Source: Nocardia arthritidis (GTDB lineage Bacteria > Actinomycetota > Actinomycetes > Mycobacteriales > Mycobacteriaceae). Taken from it: DNA of 64,000 nt. This document shows, piece after piece, positions 45,897 to 64,000 of the stretch (its first letter is position 1; every line of letters starts with the position of its first letter). The DNA lies in contig NZ_CP046172.1 in the NCBI RefSeq assembly GCF_011801145.1, forward strand, positions 2,170,001 to 2,234,000, given 5' to 3'. The position numbers and the translations under genes are program-made. The notes under the pieces were generated by a model. The model was not told where the DNA came from. It saw only the letters and a list, made by a program, of their open reading frames with translations, and searched no databases.

Positions 45897-46002
45897 TTTG
45901 GTTGGTGCTCCACCCTCGCGGCTATTTGCGGCACTCAACTATGCAAATTGCCTTGTCGCGTAATGTGGGTAGATGTGCACGGGTTACGGAAGGATTCATG
46001 CA

Positions 46003-49370: not shown

Positions 49371-50994
49371 TCGGAATTTGCTCATGTCAAAGGCACGCAC
49401 TGATCTGACCGTCGAGTATCAAGAACTGAGCAGGCTGTTTGCGGAATGTCTTGAGCTCGGGGTGGTCCAGGCCGACGACGACTTCTTCGAGCTTGGAGGG
49501 TCCTCCCAGTCTGCGGTGAGGCTAGCCGCGGAGATCAGAAGAGTCTTTGGGTTGGAGGTGACAATCGCGGACGTGTTCCGCCACCCGAGCATCCGTAAGC
49601 TGAGCGCGATGTTAGAGACGATTGAGCCGACCGCTCAGCCGATAACTCGGGCCGATCGTCATGGCAATCTGCCGGTCTCGTTCGCCCAGGAGCGCCTGTG
49701 GATTACGGATGCCTTCAGCGGTCCCAACATTCTCTATAATGTTCCTCTTCTCATCGATCTTCATGGTGATTTGGACGTCGATGCTCTGAGCGCCGCAGTC
49801 GGAGACGTCGTTGGACGGCACGAGGCGCTGCGCACCTGTATCGTCATGAATGACCTCGATCTGCACCAAGTGGTATTACCTCCGGTCGCCATAGGTATGC
49901 GGATCGTATCCTCGACCACAGACACAGTTCGTCGGGATGTGCTCGCCACGGCGAGCAGGCCGTTCGACCTCAGCACCGGGATACCATTGCGAGCGGAGCT
50001 GTTCAAATGTGGCCCGGATCGGCATGTCCTTCTACTATTGATTCACCACATTGCTGTCGATGGCTGGTCTCTCAAGGCTATGGTCAATGACCTTGGGTTC
50101 GCATACACGATGCGTCTAGCCGGCGCGGAACCAGCCTGGCCGCCGCTGCCAGTGCAGTATGCCGATTTTACTGTGTGGCAGCGCCGAATGTTTGACCTCG
50201 ACAATCCATCTGAAAATTGCCTGCGACACACAGCCTTCTGGCGTGCGACGCTTGACGGGATGCCGGAAGTGACCACGATGGACACCGACCGACCGCGCCC
50301 GGCAGTGCGAAGCCACAGGGGGAGGCAGGTCGAAATCGTGATCGATCGTGCTCGCCATCAGGCGCTCGCTGATTTTGCGCGCGGTAAAGGGCTCACAGTT
50401 TTCGTCCTTGTGCACGCTGCCATCGTGGTGTTGCTGCGACTGCGGAACTCCGGAGACGATATCGCAGTCGGCGCGACGGTAGCGGGCCGCCCCGACACGG
50501 CGTTGGAAAACCTCATCGGCTTCTTCGTGAATACGGTGATCCTGCGCGTGAATCTGTCCGGTAACCCTAAGATCAGTGAGGTGCTTCAGCGGGTATATCA
50601 AACGGATCTCACAGCCATGGACCATCAGGAGTACCCGTTCAACCATGCCATTGCGTTGCTGAACCCAACCCGATCCATGGCATACCATCCGGGGATTCAG
50701 ATACTGCTCGCCTTCCAAGTGGGACAACTTCTCCCGCCCCGTATGCCGGGGCTGCGGGCCGAGGTGGAACAGTTTGACTTGGGGATCGCAAAGTTTGATC
50801 TCACTTTCGATCTCACTGAGTATTTCGAGGAATCGTCGTTGCCGGATGGAATTCGCGGGCATCTGGAGTTCTCTACGGACCTCTTCGATCTCTCGACAGC
50901 CGAGTCCATAGTCCATGATCTCGATCGTCTGCTTGGCGTGATTGTGCATGAGCCGGAACTCTGTCTGGACGAAGTCTTTGCCGAGGGCTACTGA
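49363..50994 (+). CDS. NRPS thiolation-condensation (T-C) didomain
   Basis: 543 aa; ATG inside the end of the ThDP gene. The carrier domain (15-90) has D-D-D-F-F-E-L-G-G-S-S (Ser48). The condensation domain (100-540) has S-F-A-Q-E-R-L-W, an intact catalytic H-H-I-A-V-D-G (228-234), Y-A-D-F-T-V-W-Q, V-A-G-R-P-D and I-G-F-F-V-N-T. This is the LCL-like type by look. There is no adenylation domain, so the carrier is loaded in trans by another protein, perhaps a free A domain or an acyl unit, and then condensed to a downstream carrier. Confidence 0.92.
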   Translation: MFDRNLLMSKARTDLTVEYQELSRLFAECLELGVVQADDDFFELGGSSQSAVRLAAEIRRVFGLEVTIADVFRHPSIRKLSAMLETIEPTAQPITRADRHGNLPVSFAQERLWITDAFSGPNILYNVPLLIDLHGDLDVDALSAAVGDVVGRHEALRTCIVMNDLDLHQVVLPPVAIGMRIVSSTTDTVRRDVLATASRPFDLSTGIPLRAELFKCGPDRHVLLLLIHHIAVDGWSLKAMVNDLGFAYTMRLAGAEPAWPPLPVQYADFTVWQRRMFDLDNPSENCLRHTAFWRATLDGMPEVTTMDTDRPRPAVRSHRGRQVEIVIDRARHQALADFARGKGLTVFVLVHAAIVVLLRLRNSGDDIAVGATVAGRPDTALENLIGFFVNTVILRVNLSGNPKISEVLQRVYQTDLTAMDHQEYPFNHAIALLNPTRSMAYHPGIQILLAFQVGQLLPPRMPGLRAEVEQFDLGIAKFDLTFDLTEYFEESSLPDGIRGHLEFSTDLFDLSTAESIVHDLDRLLGVIVHEPELCLDEVFAEGY

Positions 50995-51127
50995 TGTTTC
51001 GTATCTGCAGATCGACAGGGGTGCACTGAGTATGGGGTGGTCGCGTTTCGCGAGAGCTAACAGGAGCTTGCGTACCGAAGAATGGGGTATTGGTCGACAA
51101 GGAGGACTTAGAGCCCGGTTATGGAGC

Positions 51128-52384
51128 ATGACGCCGCCTCTGCTGCAGCAGACTTCCTTCCGTCGATTCTGGACGGCGCAGACGATTTCATACTTCGGCG
51201 ACCAGATTACCTTTGTAGCATTGCCGCTAACTGCGGTCCTCGCACTCCACGCGAACGCCGCTCAGGTGGGGCTGTTGTCCGCGGCGGGTTCGCTGCCGAG
51301 CCTGATATTTGCGTTGCACGCTGGCGCGTTCGTTGACCAGTTCGGGAGACGGCGCAAAATGATGATCTTGGCCGACCTACTTCGCGCTGCTTTACTGCTT
51401 ACGGTCCCGATAACTTACTGGCTCGGCCAGCTGACCATACAGCACCTGTACATCGTCGCCTTTCTGACTGGGTCTCTCGCAGTCGTATTCGGCATCTGCG
51501 CAAATAGTCTGTTCGTCGCTCTGGTGCCGAGAGATGATTTTGTGCGAGGAAACTCGCTAGTCAAAGGAAGCTATTATCTTTCATGGGTAGCCGGTCCGAC
51601 CGCAGGTGGTGCGCTGATACAGGCCGTCTCTGGTCCGATTTCTATTTTGTGTGATGTTGTATCGTTCATCGGTTCAGCCTTGTTACTCAGGTCTATATCG
51701 CCCGAAGAACCGCCGCGGATAAAAGCGGGGCGCGGGCATCTAAGCGAAGGATTCTTGTTCATTCGCCGCGCGTCTGCTCTGTTGGCGAAGTTTTTCATCG
51801 ATGCCAGTTTGAATTTCTTCTACACAATCTACTTCACCCTCCTTTTCCTATTCGCGGCAAAGGAGTTGCGGTTGTCGGCTCTCGCTATCGGCCTTGTACT
51901 CGCCGCTGGGGCAGTTGGTGCAGTTGTTGGGTCGGCACTGACCACGCGCGTGAGCCTGCGCATCGGGGTTGGCCCCGCCTTCCTTGTCGGGTCTTTCATC
52001 TATCCTGGGGCGCTAGTTCTTGCTCCTATTGCCGGCGGGCCGCAGTGGTTGGCTGCGGGCCTATTGGTCATTGCGGAATTCACCTCTGGCGTTGGCTTGA
52101 TGATCTGTGATATCTCCGGGAGCTCTATCCAGCAAGCATTGACACCGGACCGGCTGCGTGGTCGCGTACAAGGGGCGTTCATGTTATTCAACAACGGATT
52201 TCGGCCGTTTGGAGCTTTGCTGGGTGGCGCGCTCGGCACGTGGCTCGGACTACGGCCGACCTTGTGGGTTGCCTCGATTGGAGGTGTTCTCAGTGTCATG
52301 CTGATTTTGCCGTCGTCGATTCGTCGAATGCGTACACTTCCGGAGGAAGCCGACTTTCCGGTTGTCGATTCGGCAGATGCGTAG
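51128..52384 (+). CDS. MFS exporter
   Basis: 418 aa with about 12 hydrophobic helices. Signatures of the MFS_3/EntS-like group: F-W-T-A-Q-T-I-S-Y-F-G-D-Q-I at the start, the inter-helix loop D-Q-F-G-R-R-R-K-M, and R-G-R-V-Q-G-A-F in the second half. Exporters of this type move siderophores and peptides out of the producer. The start at 51128 is tentative: a good AAGGAGG lies 22 nt upstream, but no in-frame start follows it closely. It lies 133 bp after the T-C gene. Confidence 0.88.
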   Translation: MTPPLLQQTSFRRFWTAQTISYFGDQITFVALPLTAVLALHANAAQVGLLSAAGSLPSLIFALHAGAFVDQFGRRRKMMILADLLRAALLLTVPITYWLGQLTIQHLYIVAFLTGSLAVVFGICANSLFVALVPRDDFVRGNSLVKGSYYLSWVAGPTAGGALIQAVSGPISILCDVVSFIGSALLLRSISPEEPPRIKAGRGHLSEGFLFIRRASALLAKFFIDASLNFFYTIYFTLLFLFAAKELRLSALAIGLVLAAGAVGAVVGSALTTRVSLRIGVGPAFLVGSFIYPGALVLAPIAGGPQWLAAGLLVIAEFTSGVGLMICDISGSSIQQALTPDRLRGRVQGAFMLFNNGFRPFGALLGGALGTWLGLRPTLWVASIGGVLSVMLILPSSIRRMRTLPEEADFPVVDSADA

Positions 52385-52611
52385 GCCGCCAAGCGGCTCG
52401 ATTATTCTTCGCGGCATCGCCTGTGGCTTCGGGTCTAGCTCTGATTACTGAAGTGTGCACGTTGCGAAGGCTCAATACCGCGGACTGGTGGAGTCGGTGC
52501 CCATCTGATGTGATAACGGAAGGAAGTGTGTGACTCTCACAGGTGATGGCAACTAGGCGGCAGCAGGTATGTTCTGCCAAGTTCAATTTAACTGCATTAA
52601 TAGGGGTTATA

Positions 52612-53994
52612 ATGATATCCATTGCGGAGCGAAAGAATCGCGAGCGCGTACGAGCTCTTACGATGAGAGAGAATGCGCTGGTTGTACAACGGACCAGGAA
52701 ATCAGCAAAGATGCTTGAGGTCGCCAGTCGTTCTTTGTCTGGTGGAGTCGCCTCATCTTATCAATTCCGTAAACCATGTCCAATCTATATAGACCGCGGC
52801 AACGGTCCAGTCGTATGGGACGTTGATGGAAACGAGATGTGGGACTTCCACAATGGATTCGGCTCGATGATCCAAGGCCACGCACATCCGGCTATTGGTT
52901 ACGCCGTTCGCGATCGCTACACCAAGGGAACCCATTTTGCGGCGCCGACAGAGGACGGAATAATCGTTGCCGATGAACTCCAACGACGCTGGGGACTCGG
53001 GCAGTGGCGGTATACTAATTCGGGTTCCGAGGCCACGATGGATGCGATCAGGATCGCCCGAGGCTTCACCGGCCGTGACACGGTCATGAAGATTTTTGGC
53101 TCATATCACGGTCATCACGATGCGGTCATGGTATCGATCGCAGGCGAGTATGAAACCATTGGACATGCCGATTCGCTTGTGTCCGTGCCATTCGGGGCCG
53201 GGATCCCGAAATCGACGGTCGATTTAACGGTCGCCGTGCCTTATAATGACGCCGCGGCAATGGAGCGTCGGATTGAAAGTTTAATCCGGCAAGGGCGTAA
53301 ACCCGCCTGCGTCATTATGGAGGCCGTGCCGATGAACATGCGGGTAATTCTCCCGGAGCCCGGCTATCTTGAGGCCGTTCGAGAGATCACCAGCCGGTAT
53401 GGCATCGTTCTGATCTTCGATGAGGTCAAGACCGGGTTGAGTATCGCCTCCGGTGGCGCGACGGAACGCTTCGGTGTGCGTCCAGACTTGGTCACGCTGG
53501 CAAAGGCGTTGGGTGCGGGATTGCCGATGGGGGCGGTAGGCGGAACCGAGGATGTGATGTCCGTAGTGAAGGATGGCCGTGTCTACCAGGTGGGTACGTT
53601 TAATGGAAATCCTATGTGCATGTCAGCTGCCCGCGCCAATCTTCTGGAGGTGCTGACGCCAGAGGCCTATACCCGTCTCGAAGAACTTAGTAGACGCTTG
53701 GTTAGCGCCTGTAATTCTGTTCTCGCAGATTCTGCTATTCCTGGGTATTCGCTGGGGCTAGGCGCGAAAGGTTGTGTTACGTTCTCGGCCTCGAAGATAG
53801 TCGACTATCGGAGTTTTCAGGCCAATCGAGACGAAGAACTCAGTCAATTATTCTGGCTCTACTGTTTTAACCGCGGAATATATACCGCGCCAAACCGTGA
53901 TCAGGAGTGGACGCTGTCGGTGGTGCACACTGCGGAGTCCGTCGACGCGTACGCTGCAGTACTGGGTGAGATGGTATCGGACATTGCAGGTTGA
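52612..53994 (+). CDS. Class III aminotransferase, glutamate-1-semialdehyde-aminomutase-like
   Basis: 460 aa; ATG 52612 with A-G-G-G-G-T. PLP features: T-N-S-G-S-E-A-T (phosphate binding), S-Y-H-G-H-H-D, I-F-D-E-V-K-T-G and Lys298 in T-L-A-K-A-L-G-A-G. The sequence follows GSAM/amino-mutase proteins (N-terminal V-A-S-S-Y-Q-F-R-K, D-V-D-G-N-E-M-W-D-F). Within a peptide cluster such enzymes convert aldehydes or keto groups to amines or shift an amino group. It may make an unusual amino acid; it is unlikely to be the cell's heme enzyme because it lies among NRPS genes. Confidence 0.85.
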   Translation: MISIAERKNRERVRALTMRENALVVQRTRKSAKMLEVASRSLSGGVASSYQFRKPCPIYIDRGNGPVVWDVDGNEMWDFHNGFGSMIQGHAHPAIGYAVRDRYTKGTHFAAPTEDGIIVADELQRRWGLGQWRYTNSGSEATMDAIRIARGFTGRDTVMKIFGSYHGHHDAVMVSIAGEYETIGHADSLVSVPFGAGIPKSTVDLTVAVPYNDAAAMERRIESLIRQGRKPACVIMEAVPMNMRVILPEPGYLEAVREITSRYGIVLIFDEVKTGLSIASGGATERFGVRPDLVTLAKALGAGLPMGAVGGTEDVMSVVKDGRVYQVGTFNGNPMCMSAARANLLEVLTPEAYTRLEELSRRLVSACNSVLADSAIPGYSLGLGAKGCVTFSASKIVDYRSFQANRDEELSQLFWLYCFNRGIYTAPNRDQEWTLSVVHTAESVDAYAAVLGEMVSDIAG

Positions 53995-54569
53995 AGAGGT
54001 AGATTTTGCAATCGCCGAGCACGGGCGCCTGGGAGTTATAAGGACCCGTCTGGCAAAATAATCCGCCATACCGGACCTCCGTCATAAATCGCTTCATCGA
54101 CCAGACTATCGGCATGCATTATCGCGAAGGCGTAAGTCAGGGTACTGCTCGCAGCAAGCTATGCGCATTGGCGCTTAAATAGGATGCAATGGTATAGGTG
54201 AGACGTCACTGCTGTACAGCAGTGACGTCTGCTGGTCGGGCGACCTATTTATCATCTGATTCACGGGGCATTGATCGCATTTGATTCGTGAGCCGGATGG
54301 AGCTGTAACTGGCCATGCGACGCATGAGGCGAGGTGATTGGCTGCGCCGGGCTGCGTTGCCGTGCATTATCAATAAAGCCAACCTTGCTTACAGTTTCCC
54401 TGAAACAAGCGGACTATTGACTGCTCGCCAAGGGCTGCCTAGAGTTATTCCTAGATTGTCTGGTGGACGCGGGGCAGGCAGTATTTTGCGTTACTCAGTA
54501 AGCTCTTCCGCCGTGTCGGCGATTCTAGAACCGGTGTGGAATATATCGGCCGGAACGTTGAGAGGTGAA
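53995..54569. other. Regulatory gap before the piperazate/N-hydroxylase operon
   Basis: About 575 bp without a credible gene. It includes the perfect palindrome at 54201-54230, a possible -35/-10 just before it (TTGGCG at 54168, TATAGG at 54193; spacer 19 bp, so weak) and a 255-bp in-frame upstream extension of the next gene that lacks family similarity. Confidence 0.5.
54201..54230. promoter_or_regulatory. Perfect 30-bp palindrome, candidate operator
   Basis: Two 15-bp arms (AGACGTCACTGCTGT and its exact reverse complement) meet without a loop. It starts directly after a TATAGG that could be a -10, so a protein bound here would cover the transcription start, and it lies 340 bp before the N-hydroxylase ATG. 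No T-run follows, which argues against an intrinsic terminator, and arms of medium GC fit an operator better. Confidence 0.5.
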
Positions 54570-56546
54570 ATGAATTCTTCAGCCAACGGTTTCGAAGTTT
54601 CCCAGCTGTATGATCTCGTTGGTGTCGGTTTCGGCCCTTCGAACCTCGCCTTAGCCGTTGCCGCACAGGAGATTGACCCTGTGCTGAACTGCTTGTTCGT
54701 GGAGCGCAGCCCTGAGTTCAGCTGGCATCCAGGGATGATGTTCGAGGGCTCGCGTATGCAGATCTCGTTCCTCAAAGACTTGGTCTTAATGCGCAACTTA
54801 GCTAGTCCATACTCATTCCTGAATTATCTGAAGCAACGAGGTAGACTGGAGGACTTTGTCAACCTCGGCGATATCTATCCCTCGCGCATGGAATACAGCG
54901 ACTATTTGTGTTGGGTTGCGGGCCATTTTGACGATGATGTGGTGTATGGCACTGAGGTGACCAAGGTGTCTTTGGTTGACAGCCGGTTGTTTGAGATTGT
55001 CATGCACGACAACAGTACCAACCGTTCCCGGGTAGTTCGTGCCCGCAATGTGGTAGTAGCTCCCGGTGGAACGCCCAAGCTCCCGCGGGGCGTGGACCTG
55101 GACCATGTCATCCACTCCAGCCGGTTCTTGCCTAATTTCCCGCAGCGGTGGCCAGATCCTGCGACTCCCCGCCGTCTGGTGGTGGCTGGTGATGGCCAGA
55201 GTGCGGCAGAGATCGCGGCGTATGTGTTGCAGCATCATCCCGACACCGAGCTTCACCTGGTGATTGCCAGCTACGCGCTTCGTCCGGCCGACAGCAGTCC
55301 CTTCGTCAATGAGCAGTTCTACTCGACTAACTCTTCGAGCTTCTACCGCGAGTCTAAGAGCCGCAGGGCGGGGCAGCTGGCGGACTTGCGTAACACCAAC
55401 TATGGCGTGGTCGAGACCACAGTGCTCAATGAGCTCTACCGCACCGCGTATCTCGATAAGGTACGTGGCTGCAACAGACTTGTCATCCATCGCTATTCCC
55501 GGATTACCGGAATTCGGTCCGACGGCGGCGCCGTAGTTACCATCGAGGACCGGTTCGACGGGACGATGCGTACCATTGACTGCGACGCTGTGGTGATGGC
55601 GACTGGTTATGAGCGGCAACTGGATTCGAGAATCTTCGAAGAGGTGATACCTCACGTTGCCTATGACGAGGCTGGCGACTTCATCGTCTCCGAGAATTAC
55701 CGGGTTGAGCTGAGTCCTGGCCTTACGGCTGGGCTCTATATCCAAGGACTTGGGGAGCGGTCCTTCGGTATTGGAGATACGCTGTTATCTCTGCTGCCAT
55801 TTCGGTCGGAGCAGATCGTCACTGACATTCGAGATCGCATCGTCACGGCTGTTTATCCGCCAAGACGCCACCTGGAGGAAAACAGCGATAAGCTCTATGC
55901 CGTAATCGAGCGCTTCAAGCTCGCGACAGTAGTTTCCGCTCGCGGGATCGACGATCCGGTCGTCACACGGGTGCCGTTAATCCTGGAGCGCGGACGCGGC
56001 TCGCACGGAGTCCTGTTCGGCCATTTCGACCGTGCCAACCCACATGCTCGGCTACTCGATGGCCGAGTGATCACTGTCCTTTTCCATGGGCCGGATAGCT
56101 ATATCTCATCACACGTTTACGCGACGGATCAGTTGCCAACCTGGAATTCGGTGACCGTCGAGGTGCGGGGTCGAGCCCGGCTCCTGCGTGATCGCGACCG
56201 CATCGTCGCGGGGCTTTGCCGGATCGCGAAGATCTCTGAGCGCTTCGCGGTCCAATCCACACTCCGTTCTGACGACAAGCGGATTGTCCCGCTGTTAGAG
56301 CACATTGTCGCCTTCGAGATTGAGATCACTGACCTCGTGGGGCGTTTCAAGCTCTCCCAGGACCGCGACGAGGAGGACCGGCGGCTGGCCGCCGAGGAGC
56401 TAGCCACCGCAGCCGGTGGGCAGCGCGATCTCATCGGATATCTGGTCGACATGTCACTGGAGCAGAAAAGCCATGACTCCGCATTGGTGAACGGCAGCGT
56501 TGGTCAGCATCTACCCGGAGGTACACACAGTGGACAGCACACGTAA
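54570..56546 (+). CDS. Fusion of ornithine/lysine N-hydroxylase and KtzT/PaiB-type domain: predicted one-chain piperazate synthase
   Basis: 658 aa from ATG 54570 (G-A-G-A-G-G-T-G-A-A upstream). Residues 12-425 form a flavin N-monooxygenase (SidA/PvdA/KtzI type): G-V-G-F-G-P-S-N-L-A for FAD, G-D-G-Q-S-A-A-E for NADPH, A-T-G-Y-E near 344. Residues 428-600 match PaiB-like proteins, the family of piperazate synthase KtzT: G-H-F-D-R-A-N-P-H (484-492), F-H-G-P-D-S-Y-I-S, P-T-W-N-S-V, and G-R-F-K-L-S-Q. KtzI hydroxylates ornithine N5 and the heme enzyme KtzT closes the N-N bond to L-piperazate. Annotation as a negative transcriptional regulator would be wrong here. The C-terminal 30 residues are disordered and overlap the MbtH start. 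Confidence 0.88.
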   Translation: MNSSANGFEVSQLYDLVGVGFGPSNLALAVAAQEIDPVLNCLFVERSPEFSWHPGMMFEGSRMQISFLKDLVLMRNLASPYSFLNYLKQRGRLEDFVNLGDIYPSRMEYSDYLCWVAGHFDDDVVYGTEVTKVSLVDSRLFEIVMHDNSTNRSRVVRARNVVVAPGGTPKLPRGVDLDHVIHSSRFLPNFPQRWPDPATPRRLVVAGDGQSAAEIAAYVLQHHPDTELHLVIASYALRPADSSPFVNEQFYSTNSSSFYRESKSRRAGQLADLRNTNYGVVETTVLNELYRTAYLDKVRGCNRLVIHRYSRITGIRSDGGAVVTIEDRFDGTMRTIDCDAVVMATGYERQLDSRIFEEVIPHVAYDEAGDFIVSENYRVELSPGLTAGLYIQGLGERSFGIGDTLLSLLPFRSEQIVTDIRDRIVTAVYPPRRHLEENSDKLYAVIERFKLATVVSARGIDDPVVTRVPLILERGRGSHGVLFGHFDRANPHARLLDGRVITVLFHGPDSYISSHVYATDQLPTWNSVTVEVRGRARLLRDRDRIVAGLCRIAKISERFAVQSTLRSDDKRIVPLLEHIVAFEIEITDLVGRFKLSQDRDEEDRRLAAEELATAAGGQRDLIGYLVDMSLEQKSHDSALVNGSVGQHLPGGTHSGQHT

Positions 56547-56739
56547 CGACCTGTATGTCGTGGTACGCAACGATGAGGAGGAGTACTCCATTTGGGCGGC
56601 CGGTCGAGCCGTGCCAGCGGGTTGGGAGGTTGTCGGAGATCCCAGGCCGAGAGAGGAGTGTCTCGTCCACATCTGCGAGATCTGGACTGATCTGCGTCCC
56701 GTGAGCCTACGTCGCAACACGCAGGTGGCGGAGTCATGA
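56530..56739 (+). CDS. mbtH: MbtH-like NRPS chaperone
   Basis: 69 aa from GTG 56530 (G-G-A-G-G upstream), starting inside the fusion gene. The consensus is clear: N-D-E-E-E-Y-S-I-W, V-P-A-G-W-E, C-L-V-H-I-C-E-I-W-T-D and L-R-P-V-S-L-R. MbtH proteins bind adenylation domains and are needed for their folding or activity. The usual W-P after the Q-x-S-x motif is W-A. Coupled to the VOC gene (ATGA), it serves the A domains of the downstream synthetases. Confidence 0.93.
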   Translation: MDSTRNDLYVVVRNDEEEYSIWAAGRAVPAGWEVVGDPRPREECLVHICEIWTDLRPVSLRRNTQVAES

Positions 56740-57212
56740 CGCCGATTCCGGCCTTAGCGCCCCCCGTTTTCCATCACGTTGGGGTGCAGACTGCTGACCT
56801 GGAAAATGCGCTCGCCTGGTATGTCGACTTCTTCGGGTGTGAGCCCACTTGGATGCTGACAAGCTTTTCCCCACTCACGATCAGCAGGCTGCCCGGCATC
56901 GGAACCCTGGTTGAGCTGGTAGTCGGCTGTGTGCGGTTCCACTTGTTCGACCGTCAAGAGGCAGTTTCAGAGCCGTCTCACGCAACGGTGCCGCAGTACC
57001 AGCACCTGTGCTTTCAAGTGCGGTCGCCAGACGAGCTGCGCCGCTGGCGCAGGCACTGGCAGGAACTGCATCGGTCTGCTCGCTACATCTTTGTATTGGA
57101 CGAACAGCCGACCGAGGTGGTGGTAGACGCCAACGGGATCGAGTGCTTCTACTGCCGAGACGTCAATGGCCTGGAGTTTGAGTTCACCTATACCCCGGAG
57201 ACCGCGCAGTGA
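56736..57212 (+). CDS. VOC-family protein, probable L-DOPA extradiol dioxygenase (LmbB1-like)
   Basis: 158 aa, two beta-alpha-beta-beta-beta units. Candidate metal ligands are His14 (F-H-H-V-G-V), His90 (Y-Q-H-L-C-F) and Glu147 or 149 (N-G-L-E-F-E-F), the arrangement of VOC metalloenzymes. By sequence alone it is only a VOC protein. Its place directly before an LmbB2-like tyrosine hydroxylase gene, overlapping by 4 bp, suggests L-DOPA 2,3-cleavage as by LmbB1, which is of this size and family. Alternatives: a resistance protein binding the product, or another isomerase. Confidence 0.7.
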   Translation: MTPIPALAPPVFHHVGVQTADLENALAWYVDFFGCEPTWMLTSFSPLTISRLPGIGTLVELVVGCVRFHLFDRQEAVSEPSHATVPQYQHLCFQVRSPDELRRWRRHWQELHRSARYIFVLDEQPTEVVVDANGIECFYCRDVNGLEFEFTYTPETAQ

Positions 57213-58135
57213 CCATGAAAATCCTTGCCGACATGCGTGACCCACAAGTGACGGAATGGAACTACGGTGCATATCGGTATGGGTTGGAGCCGCTCTACCT
57301 GCCAAACTCCAAAGAATGCGTGGAACGAGGCAGGTTCGGCGCTTTGATGCCCAAGCCCTGCGATTTGGATGCCGTGAGGTTAGCGGAGCCACCCGACCTG
57401 GACCTGCTCGACGAGGTGTTCTGGTTCCGATGGATCACCGGTCACCAAATAACCTTCGTCCTTTGGCAGCTAACAGCCCGAATACTGGGACGACCAACCA
57501 TGGACCAGGAGACGGCCGAAGTCCTGACTTTTCTGGCTGAAGGCTACAGCGCCATCCTTCTCTACACGAGCTCCTGCACACGCGACTCCTACGAACGCGT
57601 GATCCGGCCCTCGATGTACCGCCAGCACCACGGCTTCAGCGGGAGCTGGGCACCGGACTACATGTTGGTGAGGTCGCTATACAACGGTCGGGCCCTAGCG
57701 TCGGAACCACGTGACACGACGGAGCGCTTGCACCGGGCTGTGCGGGTGAACCAGCTTGTGCACGCAGCAGTGGCAGCCCGGCTCGTGCCGGGCAGCGAGT
57801 CATTGTTGCGTACCTCCATATCGGAGATTCGGCTGCAACCTCGGTCCACGCTCGGGGTGGTCTACGACCAATTCTTCATGACTGTGCGCGAACCGGTCCC
57901 CGACGAAGAGATCATTAGCCAGCTAATACGGCGCTTGCGCGCCGTATTGATCGACGTGTGGCGCAACGGGCTCTATCCGGGCGGGTCCGAATCCTACGAG
58001 GGACTACCTCCAGAGCTGCGGACACCGTTTATCAGCGAGTGTGAGCACCGGTTCGACGGTATCGCGACCGGGTTGGCGCTGCTGGCCGGCGGCTTAGCGG
58101 AATCGAAGGAACGACAGAGGGTGCGAAATGCTTGA
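57209..58135 (+). CDS. Heme-dependent tyrosine 3-hydroxylase-like protein (LmbB2/SfmD-related family)
   Basis: 308 aa; GTG start in GTGA (an ATG follows 6 bp later). All-helical sequence with W-F-R-W-I-T-G-H-Q (His79), the block R-P-S-M-Y-R-Q-H-H-G-F-S-G-S-W-A (133-148) and N-Q-L-V-H-A-A-V (His185). From memory, LmbB2-type L-tyrosine 3-hydroxylases are single-domain heme proteins of about this length, with one histidine as heme ligand and one as distal base; His79 and His185 are at plausible spacing. They make L-DOPA from tyrosine with peroxide. With the preceding VOC gene this gives the opening pair of the lincomycin/pyrrolobenzodiazepine alkylproline route. Family assignment is by pattern and context. 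Confidence 0.65.
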   Translation: MTMKILADMRDPQVTEWNYGAYRYGLEPLYLPNSKECVERGRFGALMPKPCDLDAVRLAEPPDLDLLDEVFWFRWITGHQITFVLWQLTARILGRPTMDQETAEVLTFLAEGYSAILLYTSSCTRDSYERVIRPSMYRQHHGFSGSWAPDYMLVRSLYNGRALASEPRDTTERLHRAVRVNQLVHAAVAARLVPGSESLLRTSISEIRLQPRSTLGVVYDQFFMTVREPVPDEEIISQLIRRLRAVLIDVWRNGLYPGGSESYEGLPPELRTPFISECEHRFDGIATGLALLAGGLAESKERQRVRNA

Positions 58136-60359
58136 CCGGAAGATGTTCGTTATGCCTCTTTCCTCAGAGGCTAGAGCCGGGTGCGCGATCCTGGCTCAAA
58201 CGAATGGCTGCGATGAGACGATCGTCCTCGCCGCTGCGGTGTGCAGCGTGATATTCCGCCACACTAGAGAAGAGGATTTCGTTGTCTCAGGTCGGGTAAT
58301 GCGCATAACAGACAAGACCCGGTTCCGCGATTTGCTGCTACCTGGCCCCACCGGTTGCGCCGGTCGAGTGGTAGACGTCCGACTAGTACACGAAACGGGC
58401 GAGCTTTACGTCACCGCGGAGGATGGAGCGGCCTGGCAGTCGTCGTTCGACAGTCTCCTGCGACACGCGACGGCCGAGCCGGATTGCCCCGTCGGTTCGT
58501 TGCGGTTGCTTTCTCCTGAGGAGATCAAACGCGCGTTTGCAGAGATCCAGGCCGATGTCGCGCCAGGCTCAAATCCAGAAGTCCTACACGCGCCTTTTGA
58601 GCGATTGGCTCGCGACTACCCAGAACGGTCTGCGCTGATCACCTCCGGAACGACGCTTTCGTATGGTCAACTGAACGAGCGTGCAGATCGTTTCGCTGCC
58701 CACCTCGTACGGCTAGGCGCCGGACCTGATACTCCGGTTGGTGTGCTTGTGGAGCGCTCAGCTGAGCTGGTCGTCGCACTATTGGGGGCCCTCAAGTGCG
58801 GTGCACCGTTTATCCCGCTCGACCGACGGATGCCGTTCGCTAGGGTGCAGGATGTTCTTCGGGCCGCGGGTACGCACCTACTGATTGACCGCGACGCAGT
58901 TTTGGCCGGTACCAGTGTCGAATCCCCGCCCTGCGATACGACCGTAACCCCCGCTCATCCCGCATACATGTATTTCACCTCCGGTTCGACCGGCACGCCC
59001 AAAGGCGTCGTTATCGACCATCGGTGCGCCGCGCTTCGGGTCGACTGGATTGTGAGTCGCTATGGCCTAAGTCGAGACTCGATTGTTCTCCACAAGTGCC
59101 CCCTCATCTTTGATGTGGCGGTAATCGAAATCATGGCGCCGCTGAATTCTGGAGCGGCCTGCAGGATTGCTGAGCCGGATACTGAGGCGGACGTAGAACG
59201 GTTGGCTGGGCTGCTGCAGAACGGTGATGTGACGTTCGTGCACTTCGTCCCCTCAATGCTGAAAACCTTTCTCGCAGGAGTCGGCGATATGAAGTTCCCA
59301 GCAGTGCGGTGGGTCCAAACTTCGGGAGAAGCGATGCCTGCGCGGCTGCTTGACCAGGTCAAGGAGTGTTTCGGCAACGCAGAGTTCCATTCGGTCTACG
59401 GCCAAACCGAGACCTCTGAGGTCGCCTGCTGGTCCGGGACCGACAAGTCGGGTCAGTTGGAGGTTCCAATAGGCAGGCAGGTGGGGGTCTACCGACTGTA
59501 TGTGCTAGACGAGGCACTGAATCCGGTACCGCCGGGAGTCCAGGGAGAGATCTGCATCGCAGGGGTTGGAGGCCTGGCTCGCGGCTACCATAACCAGCCC
59601 GCGCTGACCGCGGAAAGGTTTGTCCCTCATCCTCAGCCGCTTGTCTCCGGAGAGCGGCTGTATCGCACCGGCGACCTAGGAGTCCTGGACGCGACAGGCG
59701 AGATACTGTTCCGTGGCAGAGCTGACACGCAGGCGAAAATCCGGGGAGCCAGGGTCGAACCCGTCGAGGTGGAGGCCATGCTAGCCCAGGCTCCGCGGGT
59801 CCGAGACTGCGCGGTGGTGGTTGTTCAGGATGGTCACGGCGACAACGAGCTGGTCGCGTACGTCGTCGGTGACAAACTGTCTCGCGACGAACTGGATGCC
59901 TGGCTGGTCGCGCGGTTGCCGAGTTACATGGTCCCTGCTGTCTACATGCTCATGGACTCGCTGCCTATGACCGGATCAGGCAAGCTGGACCGTAGCGCAC
60001 TACCGGCACCGACCCCAGCTGACCGGGGGGCCCGGAGCACATCAGGGGAGGCCCGGACGCAGCTGGAAGCTGAGCTATCCGCTCTGGTCGCGTTCGTTCT
60101 AGGGGTTCCCGAGGTGGGCAGGACCGATGGCTTCTTCGCCATCGGTGGTACCTCGTTGAACGCGACCCGGGTTCTGGTGCGGATCAACGCGCTCTTCGGA
60201 GTCACCGTCGATGTTGCCGACTTCTTCGCCGATCCCACCGTTCGAGGTCTGGCCGCACAGGTCGAACGCGGGCTTTTCGAGCTGGTCTCTTCCTTAACGG
60301 AAGCAGAGGCAGCACAGCGTCTCGCTGAGCTCGACTCCGCGGCAGGCGAGACACGATGA
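58128..60359 (+). CDS. NRPS protein: truncated condensation remnant - adenylation - thiolation
   Basis: 743 aa; ATG 8 bp inside the preceding gene. Residues 1-135 look like the C-terminal lobe of a condensation domain (T-I-V-L-A-A-A-V-C-S-V-I-F-R, D-F-V-V-S-G-R) without H-H-x-x-x-D-G. Adenylation cores: F-T-S-G-S-T-G-T-P-K-G, I-F-D-V-A-V-I-E, Y-G-Q-T-E-T-S-E, Y-R-T-G-D, G-S-G-K-L-D-R; carrier F-F-A-I-G-G-T-S (Ser676). My pocket alignment reads D-V-I-H-Q-S-V-E-V-K, a code I do not recognise, which suits a non-standard monomer such as piperazate or an alkylproline. The C remnant cannot condense by itself; it may only support the A domain. ATGA overlap with the next gene. Confidence 0.9.
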   Translation: MLDRKMFVMPLSSEARAGCAILAQTNGCDETIVLAAAVCSVIFRHTREEDFVVSGRVMRITDKTRFRDLLLPGPTGCAGRVVDVRLVHETGELYVTAEDGAAWQSSFDSLLRHATAEPDCPVGSLRLLSPEEIKRAFAEIQADVAPGSNPEVLHAPFERLARDYPERSALITSGTTLSYGQLNERADRFAAHLVRLGAGPDTPVGVLVERSAELVVALLGALKCGAPFIPLDRRMPFARVQDVLRAAGTHLLIDRDAVLAGTSVESPPCDTTVTPAHPAYMYFTSGSTGTPKGVVIDHRCAALRVDWIVSRYGLSRDSIVLHKCPLIFDVAVIEIMAPLNSGAACRIAEPDTEADVERLAGLLQNGDVTFVHFVPSMLKTFLAGVGDMKFPAVRWVQTSGEAMPARLLDQVKECFGNAEFHSVYGQTETSEVACWSGTDKSGQLEVPIGRQVGVYRLYVLDEALNPVPPGVQGEICIAGVGGLARGYHNQPALTAERFVPHPQPLVSGERLYRTGDLGVLDATGEILFRGRADTQAKIRGARVEPVEVEAMLAQAPRVRDCAVVVVQDGHGDNELVAYVVGDKLSRDELDAWLVARLPSYMVPAVYMLMDSLPMTGSGKLDRSALPAPTPADRGARSTSGEARTQLEAELSALVAFVLGVPEVGRTDGFFAIGGTSLNATRVLVRINALFGVTVDVADFFADPTVRGLAAQVERGLFELVSSLTEAEAAQRLAELDSAAGETR

Positions 60360-63300
60360 CTATGACGCCAGAGCAGCGGGAACTGATGCGGCGCATCCTC
60401 GACCGGCGTTTTTCTGCAGCTCGACGGTTACCGACCCGAGAGCGCGGCACTCGGGTGCCGCTGACCCCATCACAGGCTGGCATCTGGTTCTTCACCCAGC
60501 TGTATCCCGACAGCGCCGAGTACAACGTCTTCGATTTACTCGGGGTCCCTATGGTGCTGGGGGCGGCGGACCTGCGCCGCGCACTGGCCAGCATGGTCGA
60601 GCGCCACGACGCGTTGCGGCTTTACATCACGTTGGAGGACGGCAAACCCTATCAGTACGATCGGCCACCCTTCGAACCTCAAGTTGGCTGGCATGACCTG
60701 CGCGATCTGCCAGATGCCGAGGCTATAAGGCGGGCAGAGGACATCGCCAACGGGTGCGCCCAGACCCTGCTGCCGGTTGACGGGTCACCGCTGTTCTGTG
60801 CATCGGGGATCGCGATGCCTGGCAACCGGACACTGGTGGTGCTGGTCCTTCACCACCTCGTCACCGATTACGTATCGTTCACGGTGCTCATCGAGGAGCT
60901 GAGCGCGCTCCTGGCCGGCGGCTCACTGACGCCCGCGCCAGAAGCAGGATTTCTCGACTACGCTGCTTGGCTCGATCGGACCACCGACCCCGGCCGTGTC
61001 GCCGCCGAGCTGGTGTACTGGACCAACAAACTCACAGGCGACCTGCCTGTCCTCGACATGCCTAGTGACCGAGCCCGGCCTGAGCGGTCGAGTCGACGCG
61101 GACACGCGGTCGCTTTCGCCCTCGTGCCGGAGACGGTTGCCGCGCTGCGGCGGCTGGCTGCGGAGGAAGAGACCACGTTGTTCACAGTGGTCCTGGCGGC
61201 CTACAAGGTGCTGCTGATGCGATTGGGCGGCCAGCGTGACGTGATCGTGGGCACCGCGCTTGCGGGCCGCGACCATCCCGATGCCGAACGCATCGTTGGA
61301 TGCTTCATCAAGTCGCTGCCGCTGCGCACGTACATCGACCCCGCAACCACTTTTCGCAAGCTGGTCAGGGCCGTACACACGACTGTAGTCGAAGCACAGG
61401 ACCATCAAACTGTGCCCTTCGCACAGATCGTTGCCGCGCTAGGGGCACCGCATGGCATCGGCGTCCATCCAGTCTTCCAAGCGGAGTTCGGTTTGGTCGC
61501 TCTCGACGGACTGCAGCTTTCTGGAGCCGAGATCAATCCAATCACATTGCTCGACTATAACCAGGCCAAGTGGGACATTTCTGTCACGCTCTGGGATTCG
61601 GCACAGCGCGTTTCGGGCACTATGGAGTGCTCGGCTGACTTGTTCGATCAGCCGACAGTGGCCCGGTTCTGCGAGATCTACCAGCATCTCTGCGGGTTAC
61701 TTGCCGCACAACCGAATTTGGCTGTGGGCCGCCACCCGTTAGTTTCCGACGCCGAGCGCCACCGCATCTTGCATGAATTTGACGGGCGAAGGTCGGTCAC
61801 CATTGCCCAAGCAACCCTAGCTGAGTTGTTCGAAGCTCAGGTGCGGCGAACGCCCGACGCCGTGGCCGTCGAACAAGGCGAACGCACCTTAGCTTACCGG
61901 GAGTTCAACGCGCGGGCCAACCAAGCCGCATGGGCACTGCGGGAGCTAGGAGTCCGGCGCGGAGCGCCGGTGGCGCTGCTCATGCAGCGCAGTATGGACA
62001 TGCTCGTCGCAATCTATGCGGTTACCAAAAGCGGAGGCGTATACGTTCCGCTCGATCCCGAACTACCGGACCTGCGACTGGCTCACATGCTCGAAGACAC
62101 CGCCCCCGAGATCACGATCATCGACAGGCGCCGGGAGGTTCGGGTGCCGGGCCGGGCACTCCCCTACGCCGAGCTGATGGAACTCTCCGCGACCATGTCC
62201 GCGCATGACCCAGTAAACAAAGGTTCCGGCGGCAATCTGTCTCATTTGCTCTACACCTCTGGGTCTACCGGCAAGCCGAAGGCGGTGGCGTGCCCAGTAG
62301 AGACTGCAGTCGCCGACATTCTGTATATGCAACGCCAGCTGAAGTACCAGACGGATGACGCGATCCTGTTCAAGACCTCGTACGGCTTTGACACGTCGCT
62401 GTGGGAGATTTTCTGGCCCCTGTATGTCGGCGCACGCATCGTGGTGTGCCCGCCAGGTGCGGAGCGGGATCCAGCAGGGCTTATCGAGCAGATCGAGAAG
62501 CATAGCGTTACCGTCGTCGATCTGACACCGACAGTGCTGCGTGCGGTGCTCGACCTGCTTGAACCTGGCCGCTGTCCGTCGTTGCGCTACTTGCACACTG
62601 GCGGTGAAATGGTGACTGCAGACCTACGTGATGATTTCTGTTCTCGCTCCGGCGCGGAGTTGGTTAACGGCTATGGCCCGACTGAAACTGGTTGTGCAGT
62701 CACCGCGATTCTGAAGGCATCGCCAGACAACCCCACTGTGCCGCTGGGTCGTCCGCACCCCCACTTCCGTCTATACGTACTAGACGAAGCGTTGAACATG
62801 ATGCCGATCGGAATCCCAGGTGAGGCGTATCTCAGTGCAGAGGTCGGAATCGCGCATGGCTATTTTCAGCGTCCCAGGTTGACCGCCGAGCGATTCCTGC
62901 CTGATCCGTACGGGCCGCCAGGTCGCCGCATGTACCGCACGGGGGATCTCTGCAAGTACATGGCGGACGGCACGGTTACGATCCGCGGCCGCGTGGACTC
63001 GCAGATTAAGGTTCGAGGGCTCCGGGTCGAGCTTGAAGAGATCGAGTCCGTGCTGCGCGGGGCGCCAGGGGTCTCCGAATGCGCTGTGATACCTGTCGGA
63101 GCAGATATGGCTTTAGCGCTAGCCGCATTCGTCGTGATGGAGTTTGGAGAGACCTTGGATGTTGGTGGAGTCCGTGGCTACCTAGCGCAGCGGCTACCTC
63201 GACACATGGTGCCCGCCGGAGTCCAGATCGTAGACAATCTGCCGGTCAATGTCAACGGCAAAATCGACCGACAAGCTCTACTCGGATTGTGGCGGGAGGA

Positions 63301-64000
63301 CACGATCCAGACCAACTCCGCCCTGGTCGCGCCGACCGACGAGTTGGAACGACAGCTAGCCGAGGTCTTTGGCGCAGCCCTCGGCCTCTCGCATGTTGGC
63401 GTGACCGACAGTTTCTTTGACCTCGGCGGCCATTCACTTCTCGTATTTAGGCTGATTGCAGCCTGCCAACGGCAGCTAGGAATCAAGCCACAGGTCCAGG
63501 ACGTATTCGCCGCGCCCACCGTGCGGGAGTTAGCCGACCTGCTACGCACTCAGGGGCCCGATCCGCAACGGAGCCTGGTGGCTCTTGGGCCAAGGCCAGG
63601 AAGGCCGCTGGTCGTGTTCGTTCATGGTTCGGACGGCTCGGCTCTACCCTTCCATAACGTCGCCCGTCATCTCGGCAGGGAGTACTCGGTCCATGCTGTG
63701 AGGGCGGTCGACGGCGAGACATATGCCGACACAATCGAAGAGTTGGCGGCCCAGTACCTGACAGAGATCGACAAGATACGCGGGCTGAGCCCTGTGTGTC
63801 TGGCTGGTTGGTCGGTGGGGGGATGCATCGCACTGGAGATGGCGAGGCAGTGGCGACTGCGTGGAATCAAGGTACCTGCAGTACTAATGCTCGACGCATG
63901 GCCGCCGCTGGCTGTAAACGCCACCGCCGCGGCCCGGGAGTCGGTGCGAGAAGCCATCCACACAACGAGAATCCCGACAGTCGATGCGGAGGAAAAAGGT
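60356..64000 (+). CDS. Terminal NRPS module C-A-T-TE, cut by the window end
   Basis: 1215 codons are open to the edge. C domain (about 35-440) with P-L-T-P-S-Q-A-G-I-W-F and H-H-L-V-T-D-Y (166-172): the second His and Asp are kept but the usual final Gly is Tyr. A domain (about 480-950): Y-T-S-G-S-T-G-K-P-K, G-F-D-T-S-L-W-E, Y-G-P-T-E-T-G-C, Y-R-T-G-D-L, N-G-K-I-D-R. Pocket by eye D-T-W-D-H-G-G-C-A-K, not a code I know. Carrier Ser1027 (D-L-G-G-H-S). Thioesterase from about 1065 with A-G-W-S-V-G-G (Ser1153), which would release the final peptide, linear or cyclic. The TE is incomplete here. Confidence 0.93.
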   Translation, partial: MTMTPEQRELMRRILDRRFSAARRLPTRERGTRVPLTPSQAGIWFFTQLYPDSAEYNVFDLLGVPMVLGAADLRRALASMVERHDALRLYITLEDGKPYQYDRPPFEPQVGWHDLRDLPDAEAIRRAEDIANGCAQTLLPVDGSPLFCASGIAMPGNRTLVVLVLHHLVTDYVSFTVLIEELSALLAGGSLTPAPEAGFLDYAAWLDRTTDPGRVAAELVYWTNKLTGDLPVLDMPSDRARPERSSRRGHAVAFALVPETVAALRRLAAEEETTLFTVVLAAYKVLLMRLGGQRDVIVGTALAGRDHPDAERIVGCFIKSLPLRTYIDPATTFRKLVRAVHTTVVEAQDHQTVPFAQIVAALGAPHGIGVHPVFQAEFGLVALDGLQLSGAEINPITLLDYNQAKWDISVTLWDSAQRVSGTMECSADLFDQPTVARFCEIYQHLCGLLAAQPNLAVGRHPLVSDAERHRILHEFDGRRSVTIAQATLAELFEAQVRRTPDAVAVEQGERTLAYREFNARANQAAWALRELGVRRGAPVALLMQRSMDMLVAIYAVTKSGGVYVPLDPELPDLRLAHMLEDTAPEITIIDRRREVRVPGRALPYAELMELSATMSAHDPVNKGSGGNLSHLLYTSGSTGKPKAVACPVETAVADILYMQRQLKYQTDDAILFKTSYGFDTSLWEIFWPLYVGARIVVCPPGAERDPAGLIEQIEKHSVTVVDLTPTVLRAVLDLLEPGRCPSLRYLHTGGEMVTADLRDDFCSRSGAELVNGYGPTETGCAVTAILKASPDNPTVPLGRPHPHFRLYVLDEALNMMPIGIPGEAYLSAEVGIAHGYFQRPRLTAERFLPDPYGPPGRRMYRTGDLCKYMADGTVTIRGRVDSQIKVRGLRVELEEIESVLRGAPGVSECAVIPVGADMALALAAFVVMEFGETLDVGGVRGYLAQRLPRHMVPAGVQIVDNLPVNVNGKIDRQALLGLWREDTIQTNSALVAPTDELERQLAEVFGAALGLSHVGVTDSFFDLGGHSLLVFRLIAACQRQLGIKPQVQDVFAAPTVRELADLLRTQGPDPQRSLVALGPRPGRPLVVFVHGSDGSALPFHNVARHLGREYSVHAVRAVDGETYADTIEELAAQYLTEIDKIRGLSPVCLAGWSVGGCIALEMARQWRLRGIKVPAVLMLDAWPPLAVNATAAARESVREAIHTTRIPTVDAEEKG

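What the first reader, a model, noticed from the sequence alone, without database searches (positions are those of the whole stretch)
56736..58135. LmbB1/LmbB2-like pair beside a piperazate fusion: two rare monomer routes in one cluster
A VOC protein of LmbB1 size is coupled to a 308-aa protein that looks like the heme tyrosine 3-hydroxylases of lincomycin and pyrrolobenzodiazepine pathways. Together they would turn tyrosine into L-DOPA and then a ring-opened product that closes to a pyrroline amino acid. Together with the piperazate gene just upstream, this predicts a peptide with two nitrogen heterocycles of different origin. I know of no described compound family with both.
Basis: inference. 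Interest (0 to 1): 0.85.

Follow-up and report, generated by a model that had tools for sequence, protein, structure and literature searches.

The report
Tyrosine-to-pyrroline gene pair, probably rerouted
Two neighbouring bacterial genes that turn tyrosine into a ring-shaped peptide building block are really there, and the genes around them suggest that this peptide cluster finishes the block by a route not yet described, leaving a reactive aldehyde end that can become an amine or alcohol.

Summary
The pair is real. 56736-57212 encodes an L-DOPA dioxygenase (LmbB1 type; only PDB match 6on1, E 1.7e-55) and 57209-58135 a heme tyrosine hydroxylase (LmbB2 type; 7kqr, E 1.8e-62); the frames overlap by 4 bases and run on into NRPS genes. 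An LmbY-like F420 reductase gene lies 9 kb upstream. The upstream fusion is an ornithine N-hydroxylase, but its C-terminal heme-type domain lacks piperazate-synthase residues and matches a solved N-hydroxylamine dehydratase slightly better than KtzT, so "piperazate" is unproven. The tyrosine/ornithine combination recurs in at least four other clusters. New lead: the cluster has no LmbA, which normally cuts oxalate from the side chain. A benzoylformate-decarboxylase-like ThDP gene overlaps the reductase gene instead. Across 81 loci, LmbA was found in 58 and the ThDP gene in 10, never both. A specific alcohol dehydrogenase or a class-III aminotransferase lies in the same cluster in 7 of these 10. 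I propose decarboxylation of the keto-acid side chain to an aldehyde, then transamination here. Caveats: a possibly trans-acting LmbA-like gene exists elsewhere in this genome, and the pattern rests on few independent lineages. No enzyme was assayed.

The parts
56736..57212 (+). L-DOPA dioxygenase (LmbB1/HrmF/SibV type), VOC fold, 158 aa
   Evidence: PDB 6on1 E 1.7e-55; 83/145 identical
57209..58135 (+). heme-dependent L-tyrosine 3-hydroxylase (LmbB2/HrmE/SibU type), 308 aa
   Evidence: PDB 7kqr E 1.8e-62; H79 and H185 invariant in 29 rows, motifs aligned with chain residues 90 and 198 of 7kqr
56500..56739 (+). MbtH-like protein (start codon uncertain; stop overlaps the dioxygenase start)
   Evidence: PF03621 E 7.1e-18 for 56518-56736; frame
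54315..56546 (+). ornithine N5-monooxygenase (KtzI-like) fused to an FMN_bind_2 / PaiB-NohD-PZS-type domain
   Evidence: the database protein P0121 starts 66 residues further in
52543..53994 (+). class-III (GSA-aminomutase/GntE-like) aminotransferase; candidate for amination of the aldehyde
   Evidence: PF00202, NF041362 GntE E 4.9e-95, below that model's cut-off
50942..52384 (+). MFS exporter
   Evidence: PF07690; 65% in L005
49363..50994 (+). NRPS T-C protein
   Evidence: PF00550+PF00668
47817..49370 (+). ThDP enzyme, benzoylformate-decarboxylase-like; proposed to replace LmbA
   Evidence: best PDB hits benzoylformate decarboxylases, E 1.9e-36; NCBIfam NF005760 'acetolactate synthase large subunit' above cut-off; locus pattern
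46912..47820 (+). F420-dependent LLM-family reductase, LmbY-like
   Evidence: PF00296; 41-67% to LLM proteins beside other VOC/TyrH pairs; ATGA overlap with 47817
45973..46866 (+). Fe/2OG Asp/Asn- or proline-type hydroxylase; homologue beside VOC/TyrH in 9 of the 80 other loci
   Evidence: PF05118, PF05373
44880..45896 (+). TubC docking domain plus thioesterase
   Evidence: PF18563, PF00975
42994..44883 (+). NRPS A-T (code read as DFWNFGMVHK, threonine-like by recalled landmarks)
41752..42969 (+). cytochrome P450, upstream end of the gene set shared with L005
   Evidence: PF00067; 46% in the extended L005 cluster
58128..60359 (+). NRPS A-T (code DVIHQSVEVK)
60356..64000 (+). NRPS C-A-T-TE (domains by homology and eye), runs past the window end (to position 64282 with the next stretch joined)
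   Evidence: frame listed as open at the window end; 56% to the L005 protein

Best explanation
A mobile-element-borne NRPS cluster that builds a peptide with a tyrosine-derived five-ring amino acid. Strong by homology: TyrH hydroxylates L-tyrosine to L-DOPA, and the dioxygenase cleaves the ring at C2-C3, so that the product closes to a pyrroline carboxylic acid with a CH=CH-CO-COOH side chain. Inferred: instead of LmbA cutting off oxalate, the ThDP enzyme decarboxylates this conjugated 2-oxo acid to an enal. The LmbY-like F420 reductase reduces ring or exocyclic double bonds. The aldehyde is then transaminated here by the GSA-type aminotransferase, or reduced by the zinc alcohol dehydrogenase in sister clusters. 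The result would be a 4-(3-aminopropyl/propenyl)- or 4-(3-hydroxypropyl)-proline-like monomer that keeps a third side-chain carbon without LmbW methylation. The hydroxylase at 45973 probably hydroxylates this or another monomer. The ornithine half gives N5-hydroxyornithine; whether the fused heme-type domain turns this into piperazate or dehydrates it is open.
For: Enzyme identities. LmbA and the ThDP gene were never found together: 58 vs 7 of 81 loci, both 0, neither 16 (10 kb flanks); three of the 16 have the ThDP gene 10.8-15.7 kb off on the same contig, giving 58/10/13. In 50 of the 58 LmbA genomes a whole-genome search found ThDP homologues of at least 45% identity in 11, none within 130 kb of the locus. 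Three genomes with the ThDP gene (L013, L055 - a 3.1-Mb MAG - and L059) gave no LmbA homologue at E<=1e-40. The ThDP gene overlaps the LmbY-like gene here and lies next to one in L005, L054 and L055. The ThDP tree gives two clades of cluster-borne copies, and the trait needs 4 changes on the TyrH tree. Aldehyde handling: a 68-80% identical alcohol dehydrogenase in L005 (extended stretch), L009, L012, L013; class-III aminotransferase in L061 and L058; GSAT here; in the 58 LmbA loci only 26-33% dehydrogenase hits, in 5. L009, L012 and L013 also share a carbamoyltransferase-like family that could cap the alcohol. Same NRPS trio with LmbA in L033/L037/L040 and with ThDP here and in L005. Chemical precedent: a lmbA mutant makes OXO-LIN A, attributed to spontaneous decarboxylation of this intermediate (PMC4780272, passages).
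Against: This genome holds a gamma-GT of 49-52% identity to LmbA proteins at 7.46 Mb; a similar non-cluster enzyme, LmbA2991, did the C-C cleavage in S. lincolnensis (PMC5519988, passages and Discussion). NCBIfam names the ThDP protein acetolactate synthase. With relatedness taken into account only 2 starred independent pairs remain, too few for significance. 13 loci show neither gene in the stretch read: 4 of these lack the dioxygenase too, and 7 of the other 9 have a 58-66% LmbA homologue somewhere in the genome. Two same-genus stretches with LLM, VOC, hydroxylase and TyrH show neither. L059 shows no aldehyde-handling gene in the stretch read, and L054/L055 only a DegT-type aminotransferase whose family also occurs in 3 LmbA loci. 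The carbamoyltransferase family also occurs in 1 LmbA locus; one LmbA stretch of the validation set has a 30% class-III aminotransferase hit (G388). The GSA-type aminotransferase was not found in the L005 cluster. No activity was measured.
Confidence: 0.5

Rival explanations
1. Ordinary 4-alkylproline route: the LmbA2991-like gamma-GT encoded 5.2 Mb away removes oxalate in trans, the F420 enzyme reduces, and the ThDP enzyme serves another monomer or precursor.
For: L086 at 7,461,532 is 49-52% identical to LmbA representatives; 51-57% homologues lie elsewhere in several other ThDP-bearing genomes (L005, L009, L012, L054, L058, L061); published in-trans complementation by LmbA2991, 48.4% identical to LmbA (PMC5519988).
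Against: Does not explain why the ThDP gene was found with VOC/TyrH only where LmbA is missing, nor its overlap with the LmbY-like gene, nor the linked alcohol dehydrogenase and aminotransferases; three ThDP-bearing genomes, one of them a small MAG, showed no LmbA homologue at E<=1e-40.
Confidence: 0.27
2. The ThDP enzyme is a carboligase (acetolactate-synthase type) that adds an acyl carbon unit to, or from, the LmbB1-type product, lengthening the side chain to a hydroxyketone.
For: NCBIfam NF005760 acetolactate synthase, 635.6 bits against a cut-off of 363.
Against: Best solved relatives are benzoylformate decarboxylases; acetolactate synthases score lower (best 60 of 144 shown). All 17 compared sequences keep LLH[QL]G[PA]G, whose His aligns with a His of the solved decarboxylases (that this is His70 is recalled). 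The linked dehydrogenases and aminotransferases fit an aldehyde.
Confidence: 0.12
3. One reading: piperazate from the fusion plus an ordinary pyrroline amino acid, joined in one peptide.
For: KtzI half clear; stand-alone PZS-like protein beside the pair in L033/L037/L040 (the L033 one 225 bits to SbPZS; the others 81-84% identical to it), so sister clusters probably do make piperazate; heme-ligand His, Asn66, Thr102 and Lys173 equivalents kept here.
Against: Fused domain lacks the Tyr150 equivalent and the Met before KLSQ; PaiB keeps the same four residues without N-N activity (PMC13274692, passages); no stand-alone PZS in the cluster, the nearest good one found is about 169 kb away in another PKS/NRPS region.
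Confidence: 0.25
4. The VOC protein is a resistance or glyoxalase protein and the 308-aa protein is unrelated to LmbB2 (the finding's own refutation).
For: Only that the VOC fold is shared.
Against:: both belong to the specific families and lie in one stretch in 77 of 81 loci.
Confidence: 0.01

Closest known systems
4-alkyl-L-(dehydro)proline pathway of lincomycin, hormaomycin, anthramycin, sibiromycin, tomaymycin, porothramycin (PMC4780272 and PMC5519988, passages)
   Same: LmbB2-, LmbB1- and LmbY-type enzymes
   Different: No LmbA, LmbX or LmbW found in the cluster; a ThDP decarboxylase-like gene instead; gene set embedded with an ornithine N-hydroxylase fusion
S. sclerotialus TyrH/L-DOPA dioxygenase (PDB 7kqr, 6on1; producer recalled)
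   Same: Closest solved structures for both proteins by sequence
   Different: No structure or activity for the window proteins
KtzI-KtzT piperazate pairs (kutzneride and others; PMC11705231, passages)
   Same: Ornithine N-hydroxylase plus heme-type FMN_bind_2 partner
   Different: Fused, and the partner fails part of the piperazate-synthase residue test; slightly nearer to NohD and PaiB
Demiguisin (PMC11446937; passages and section 9 part 2 read)
   Same: Peptide with piperazate and a 4-substituted proline, HrmD/GriH-like F420 reductase
   Different: Authors propose serine/oxaloacetate or leucine origin for the proline; the words DOPA and tyrosine do not occur in the main text
Benzoylformate decarboxylase
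   Same: Best solved relatives of the ThDP enzyme; substrate is a conjugated 2-oxo acid (recalled)
   Different: Substrate here unknown; distant in sequence; NCBIfam calls the family acetolactate synthase

Membership tests
LmbB1-type L-DOPA dioxygenase | specific homology to L-DOPA dioxygenase rather than other VOC proteins | tested here: met
   sole PDB hit at E<=0.1 is 6on1
LmbB1-type L-DOPA dioxygenase | ring cleavage of L-DOPA | not testable with these tools
   needs assay
LmbB2-type heme tyrosine hydroxylase | homology to TyrH and the two heme-site His | tested here: met
   (roles of the two His recalled)
4-alkylproline (APD) gene set | LmbB1, LmbB2, LmbY and LmbA-type genes in one cluster (conserved in six known clusters, PMC5519988 passages) | tested here: not met
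   LmbA-type not found in the window and next 60 kb; only two PF01019 genes found genome-wide, both over 3.9 Mb off along the contig; the other three are present
4-alkylproline (APD) gene set | LmbX (PhzF) and LmbW for PPL-type side chains | tested here: not met
   none found in the window plus 60 kb; PhzF genes elsewhere only, weak partial hits to LmbX; LmbW not searched genome-wide; hormaomycin also lacks LmbX and tomaymycin lacks LmbW (Table 1 of PMC4780272)
piperazate synthase | His61, Asn66, Thr102, Lys173 equivalents | tested here: met
   alignment (its printed index table is off by two and was not used; the offset is my inference)
piperazate synthase | Tyr150 equivalent, and KLSQ flanked by Met and Glu (PMC13274692, PMC10888640 passages) | tested here: not met
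   Arg at the 150 position; RFKLSQD; solved SbPZS itself has Asp after KLSQ, so the Glu is not strict
N-hydroxylamine dehydratase (NohD) | closest solved relative by sequence | tested here: inconclusive
   81 bits vs 75 PaiB and 70 SbPZS: margin small; among the 20 of 42 papers listed for the word none is about this enzyme
benzoylformate decarboxylase-type ThDP enzyme | nearest solved relatives and His70 equivalent | tested here: met
   a second active-site His (recalled as His281) found no clear counterpart by eye
benzoylformate decarboxylase-type ThDP enzyme | decarboxylation of the pyrroline 2-oxo acid | not testable with these tools
   needs assay

The most novel reading that the evidence does not exclude
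A second branch of the tyrosine-to-proline pathway: a ThDP decarboxylase replaces the Ntn-hydrolase LmbA, keeps a third side-chain carbon as an aldehyde and hands it to an aminotransferase or alcohol dehydrogenase. It yields amino- or hydroxy-propyl prolines, here combined with a new product of a fused ornithine N-hydroxylase/dehydratase.
Probability: 0.4. Interest if true: 0.8.

Novelty: new variant of a known kind. Interest (0 to 1): 0.62.

Why it matters
LmbA's carbon-carbon cleavage was long the unexplained step of this pathway (PMC4780272, abstract passage). A cluster family that seems to skip it by decarboxylation would widen the set of natural proline analogues (aldehyde-, amine- or alcohol-tailed). 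It gives a directly testable enzyme substitution and a genome-mining rule: pair present, LmbA absent, ThDP gene present.

Tried and rejected
Rejected: resistance or glyoxalase identity of the VOC protein. Rejected as unproven: piperazate synthase label for the fused domain. Considered: plasmid-borne relatives; the tyrosine hydroxylase had no match in the plasmid collection. Led nowhere: all-against-all of unfiltered ORFs timed out and the first clustering was spoiled by antisense ORFs, replaced by a GC-frame filter. The search for the other element end by tRNA-Lys repeat found none in 2,150,001-2,294,000. Literature: no paper held both 'piperazic' and 'DOPA dioxygenase', nor 3 of 4 terms, nor LmbA with decarboxylase, aldehyde and F420; the 20 listed of 2,494 papers do not hold '4-alkyl-L-proline'; one search listed 2 papers, neither opened. 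The library is open-access only, so subscription papers are not covered. Validation set: of 27 genomes with a hit among 392, 16 were new and 15 of these were fetched (16 stretches; G504 was not); 11 stretches hold VOC plus TyrH, 10 with LmbA, 1 with the ThDP gene, none with both, but 10 of the 11 are at least 85% identical in DNA to an earlier locus, so they add little. Against the fusion's importance: in G563, a near twin of L005, the fusion gene is only a remnant and the dehydrogenase is incomplete. Structure prediction was not run.
Full report
WHAT IS THERE. The two ORFs stand at the stated places. The 158-aa VOC protein has one PDB match at E<=0.1, the L-DOPA dioxygenase 6on1 (E 1.7e-55; 83 of 145 aligned residues identical). 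The 308-aa protein matches the heme-dependent tyrosine hydroxylases 7kqr (E 1.8e-62) and 8r2s (E 8e-62). Its two candidate heme-site histidines, H79 and H185, are invariant in 29 relatives and their motifs align with chain residues 90 and 198 of 7kqr; their roles are recalled. The frames overlap as GTGA, the next A-T gene overlaps the hydroxylase by 8 bases, and the C-A-T-TE gene overlaps that one as ATGA. An MbtH-like ORF sits between the fusion and the dioxygenase. The genome is one contig of 10.0 Mb with a single copy of the hydroxylase found. So the pair is real, coupled, and part of an NRPS gene row.

THE CLUSTER. With the next 60 kb fetched, the set runs from the P450 at 41752 to a DUF2461 gene at joined position 72908-73696. 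It holds A-T, TubC-TE, hydroxylase, LLM reductase, ThDP enzyme, T-C, MFS, class-III aminotransferase, ornithine hydroxylase fusion, MbtH, dioxygenase, tyrosine hydroxylase, A-T, C-A-T-TE, TubC-C-A-T-TE, KAS III, AMP ligase and a class-I/II aminotransferase. Streptomyces sp. NRRL B-1347 (L005) has many of the same genes, in part rearranged; the class-III aminotransferase, KAS III and class-I/II aminotransferase were not found there.

THE ORNITHINE HALF. The N-terminal part is a KtzI relative (4tlx, E 8.5e-87). The C-terminal domain is slightly closer to NohD (81 bits) and PaiB (75) than to solved piperazate synthases (SbPZS 70, KtzT 67, PipS 53, LnzB 51). It keeps the residues that PaiB also keeps, and lacks the Tyr150 equivalent and the Met before KLSQ (alignment; criteria from passages of PMC13274692 and PMC10888640). 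L033, L037 and L040 carry, besides a fusion, a stand-alone protein; the L033 one is a clear piperazate synthase relative (225 bits to SbPZS), the other two are 81-84% identical to it. In this genome the best such gene lies about 169 kb away, in another PKS/NRPS region. I therefore do not file the fusion as a piperazate synthase.

HOW COMMON THE COMBINATION IS. Fusion and pair are linked by coordinates in the window, L005 (neighbours), L033 and L037 (about 16 kb apart) and L040 (about 37 kb apart), and in G421, a near copy of L040. Five more records share contig length between the two protein searches, four of them also the strain name; this is an inference, not a coordinate. In the window's genus 20 of 150 genomes have a hydroxylase homologue.

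LMBA IS MISSING, A THDP ENZYME IS PRESENT. One scan of species genomes gave 91 relatives, of which the best 80 were kept. In these plus the window, LmbA-like genes were found in 58, the ThDP gene in 7, both in 0, neither in 16 (10 kb flanks, the window with 60 kb more). Wider searches found the ThDP gene on the same contig 10.8, 10.8 and 15.7 kb from the hydroxylase in L012, L013 and L058, so 10 of 81. Of the remaining 13, 4 have no dioxygenase; of the other 9, 7 have a 58-66% LmbA homologue somewhere in the genome, in L027 on the same contig about 32 kb off. A Fisher test gives p 6e-7 but ignores kinship. On the tree the trait changes 4 times and only 2 well-supported independent pairs exist, never in the contrary direction, too few for significance. 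The ThDP proteins of these loci form two clades, {window, L005, L054, L055} and {L009, L012, L013, L058, L059, L061}, with the 7 generic copies compared outside both.

WHY DECARBOXYLATION. The best solved relatives are benzoylformate decarboxylases, although NCBIfam names the protein acetolactate synthase. The dioxygenase product carries a conjugated 2-oxo acid. In a lmbA mutant this intermediate is thought to decarboxylate spontaneously and to end up in OXO-LIN A (PMC4780272, passages). Loci with the ThDP gene hold aldehyde-handling genes: a 68-80% identical alcohol dehydrogenase in L005 (extended), L009, L012, L013; a class-III aminotransferase in L061 and L058; the GSA-type aminotransferase here. 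That is 7 of 10; within 10 kb flanks it is 5 of 10, against 0 of 58 LmbA loci, where 5 show only 26-33% dehydrogenase hits. ThDP loci were read further out in four cases (L005, L012, L013, L058), which favours them; of the LmbA loci, L033, L037 and L040 were. L009, L012 and L013 share a carbamoyltransferase-like family (also in one LmbA locus, one member scanned), which fits an alcohol.

WHAT SPEAKS AGAINST. A gamma-GT 49-52% identical to LmbA proteins lies at 7.46 Mb. A comparable enzyme complements lmbA in S. lincolnensis (PMC5519988, passages and Discussion), so a trans-acting enzyme could run the classical route. 51-57% homologues also lie in six of the other nine ThDP-bearing genomes (L005, L009, L012, L054, L058, L061), but L013, L055 (a 3.1-Mb MAG) and L059 gave none at E<=1e-40. 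Two same-genus stretches have reductase, dioxygenase, Fe/2OG hydroxylase and tyrosine hydroxylase but neither LmbA nor the ThDP gene. L059 shows no aldehyde-handling gene in its stretch and L054/L055 only a DegT-type one. In G563, a near twin of L005, the fusion is a remnant and the dehydrogenase incomplete.

A-DOMAIN CODES. Read by landmarks recalled for PheA, the A-T at 42994 is threonine-like and the 1382-aa NRPS serine-like. The A-T beside the pair reads DVIHQSVEVK here, DVIHQSAELK in L005 and DVWHQSAEVK in L033/L037/L040: W against I at the third position separates LmbA and ThDP versions of this NRPS family (with V/A and V/L differences inside the ThDP pair). This would fit a changed side chain, but is weak evidence.

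VERDICT. Observation confirmed; interpretation partly supported. The piperazate half is unproven; the tyrosine half is right and probably rerouted. New variant of a known kind.

Noticed in passing
window 36000 to joined position about 105000 (L002-L004): Looks like an integrated conjugative element carrying the cluster: TrwC relaxase at L002:10910-15568, a tyrosine-recombinase-like ORF by eye about 570 bases from a tRNA-Lys at L004:875-948, GC 0.52-0.63 from 36 kb to the window end against 0.64-0.70 in 14-36 kb. The other end was not found.
   Followed up: partly
L003:16740-17975 (-): DpdA-like protein (DNA deazapurine modification, PF23859) on the same presumed element.
   Followed up: no
L033:12781-13464, and equivalents in L037 and L040: Stand-alone piperazate synthase-like gene directly after LmbA in clusters that also hold an ornithine-hydroxylase fusion elsewhere; these clusters probably make piperazate plus a 4-alkylproline.
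   Followed up: partly
L134-L135 (G563): Near twin of the L005 cluster with a remnant of the fusion gene and an incomplete dehydrogenase: a decaying copy or a natural variant.
   Followed up: partly
L107-L110 (same genus as the window): Reductase, dioxygenase, Fe/2OG hydroxylase and tyrosine hydroxylase together with neither LmbA nor the ThDP gene in 36-40 kb: a possible third way of finishing the side chain.
   Followed up: no
window 44880-45896: TubC docking domain joined directly to a thioesterase, the same two end domains as in the 1382-aa C-A-T-TE protein at L002:242-4387; possibly a copy that lost its middle.
   Followed up: no
L009, L012 (L102), L013 (L103), L058 (L104), L059, L061: TauD-family dioxygenase, 76-86% identical between loci, in the stretches with the second clade of ThDP genes; another likely tailoring step of the rerouted monomer.
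   Followed up: partly
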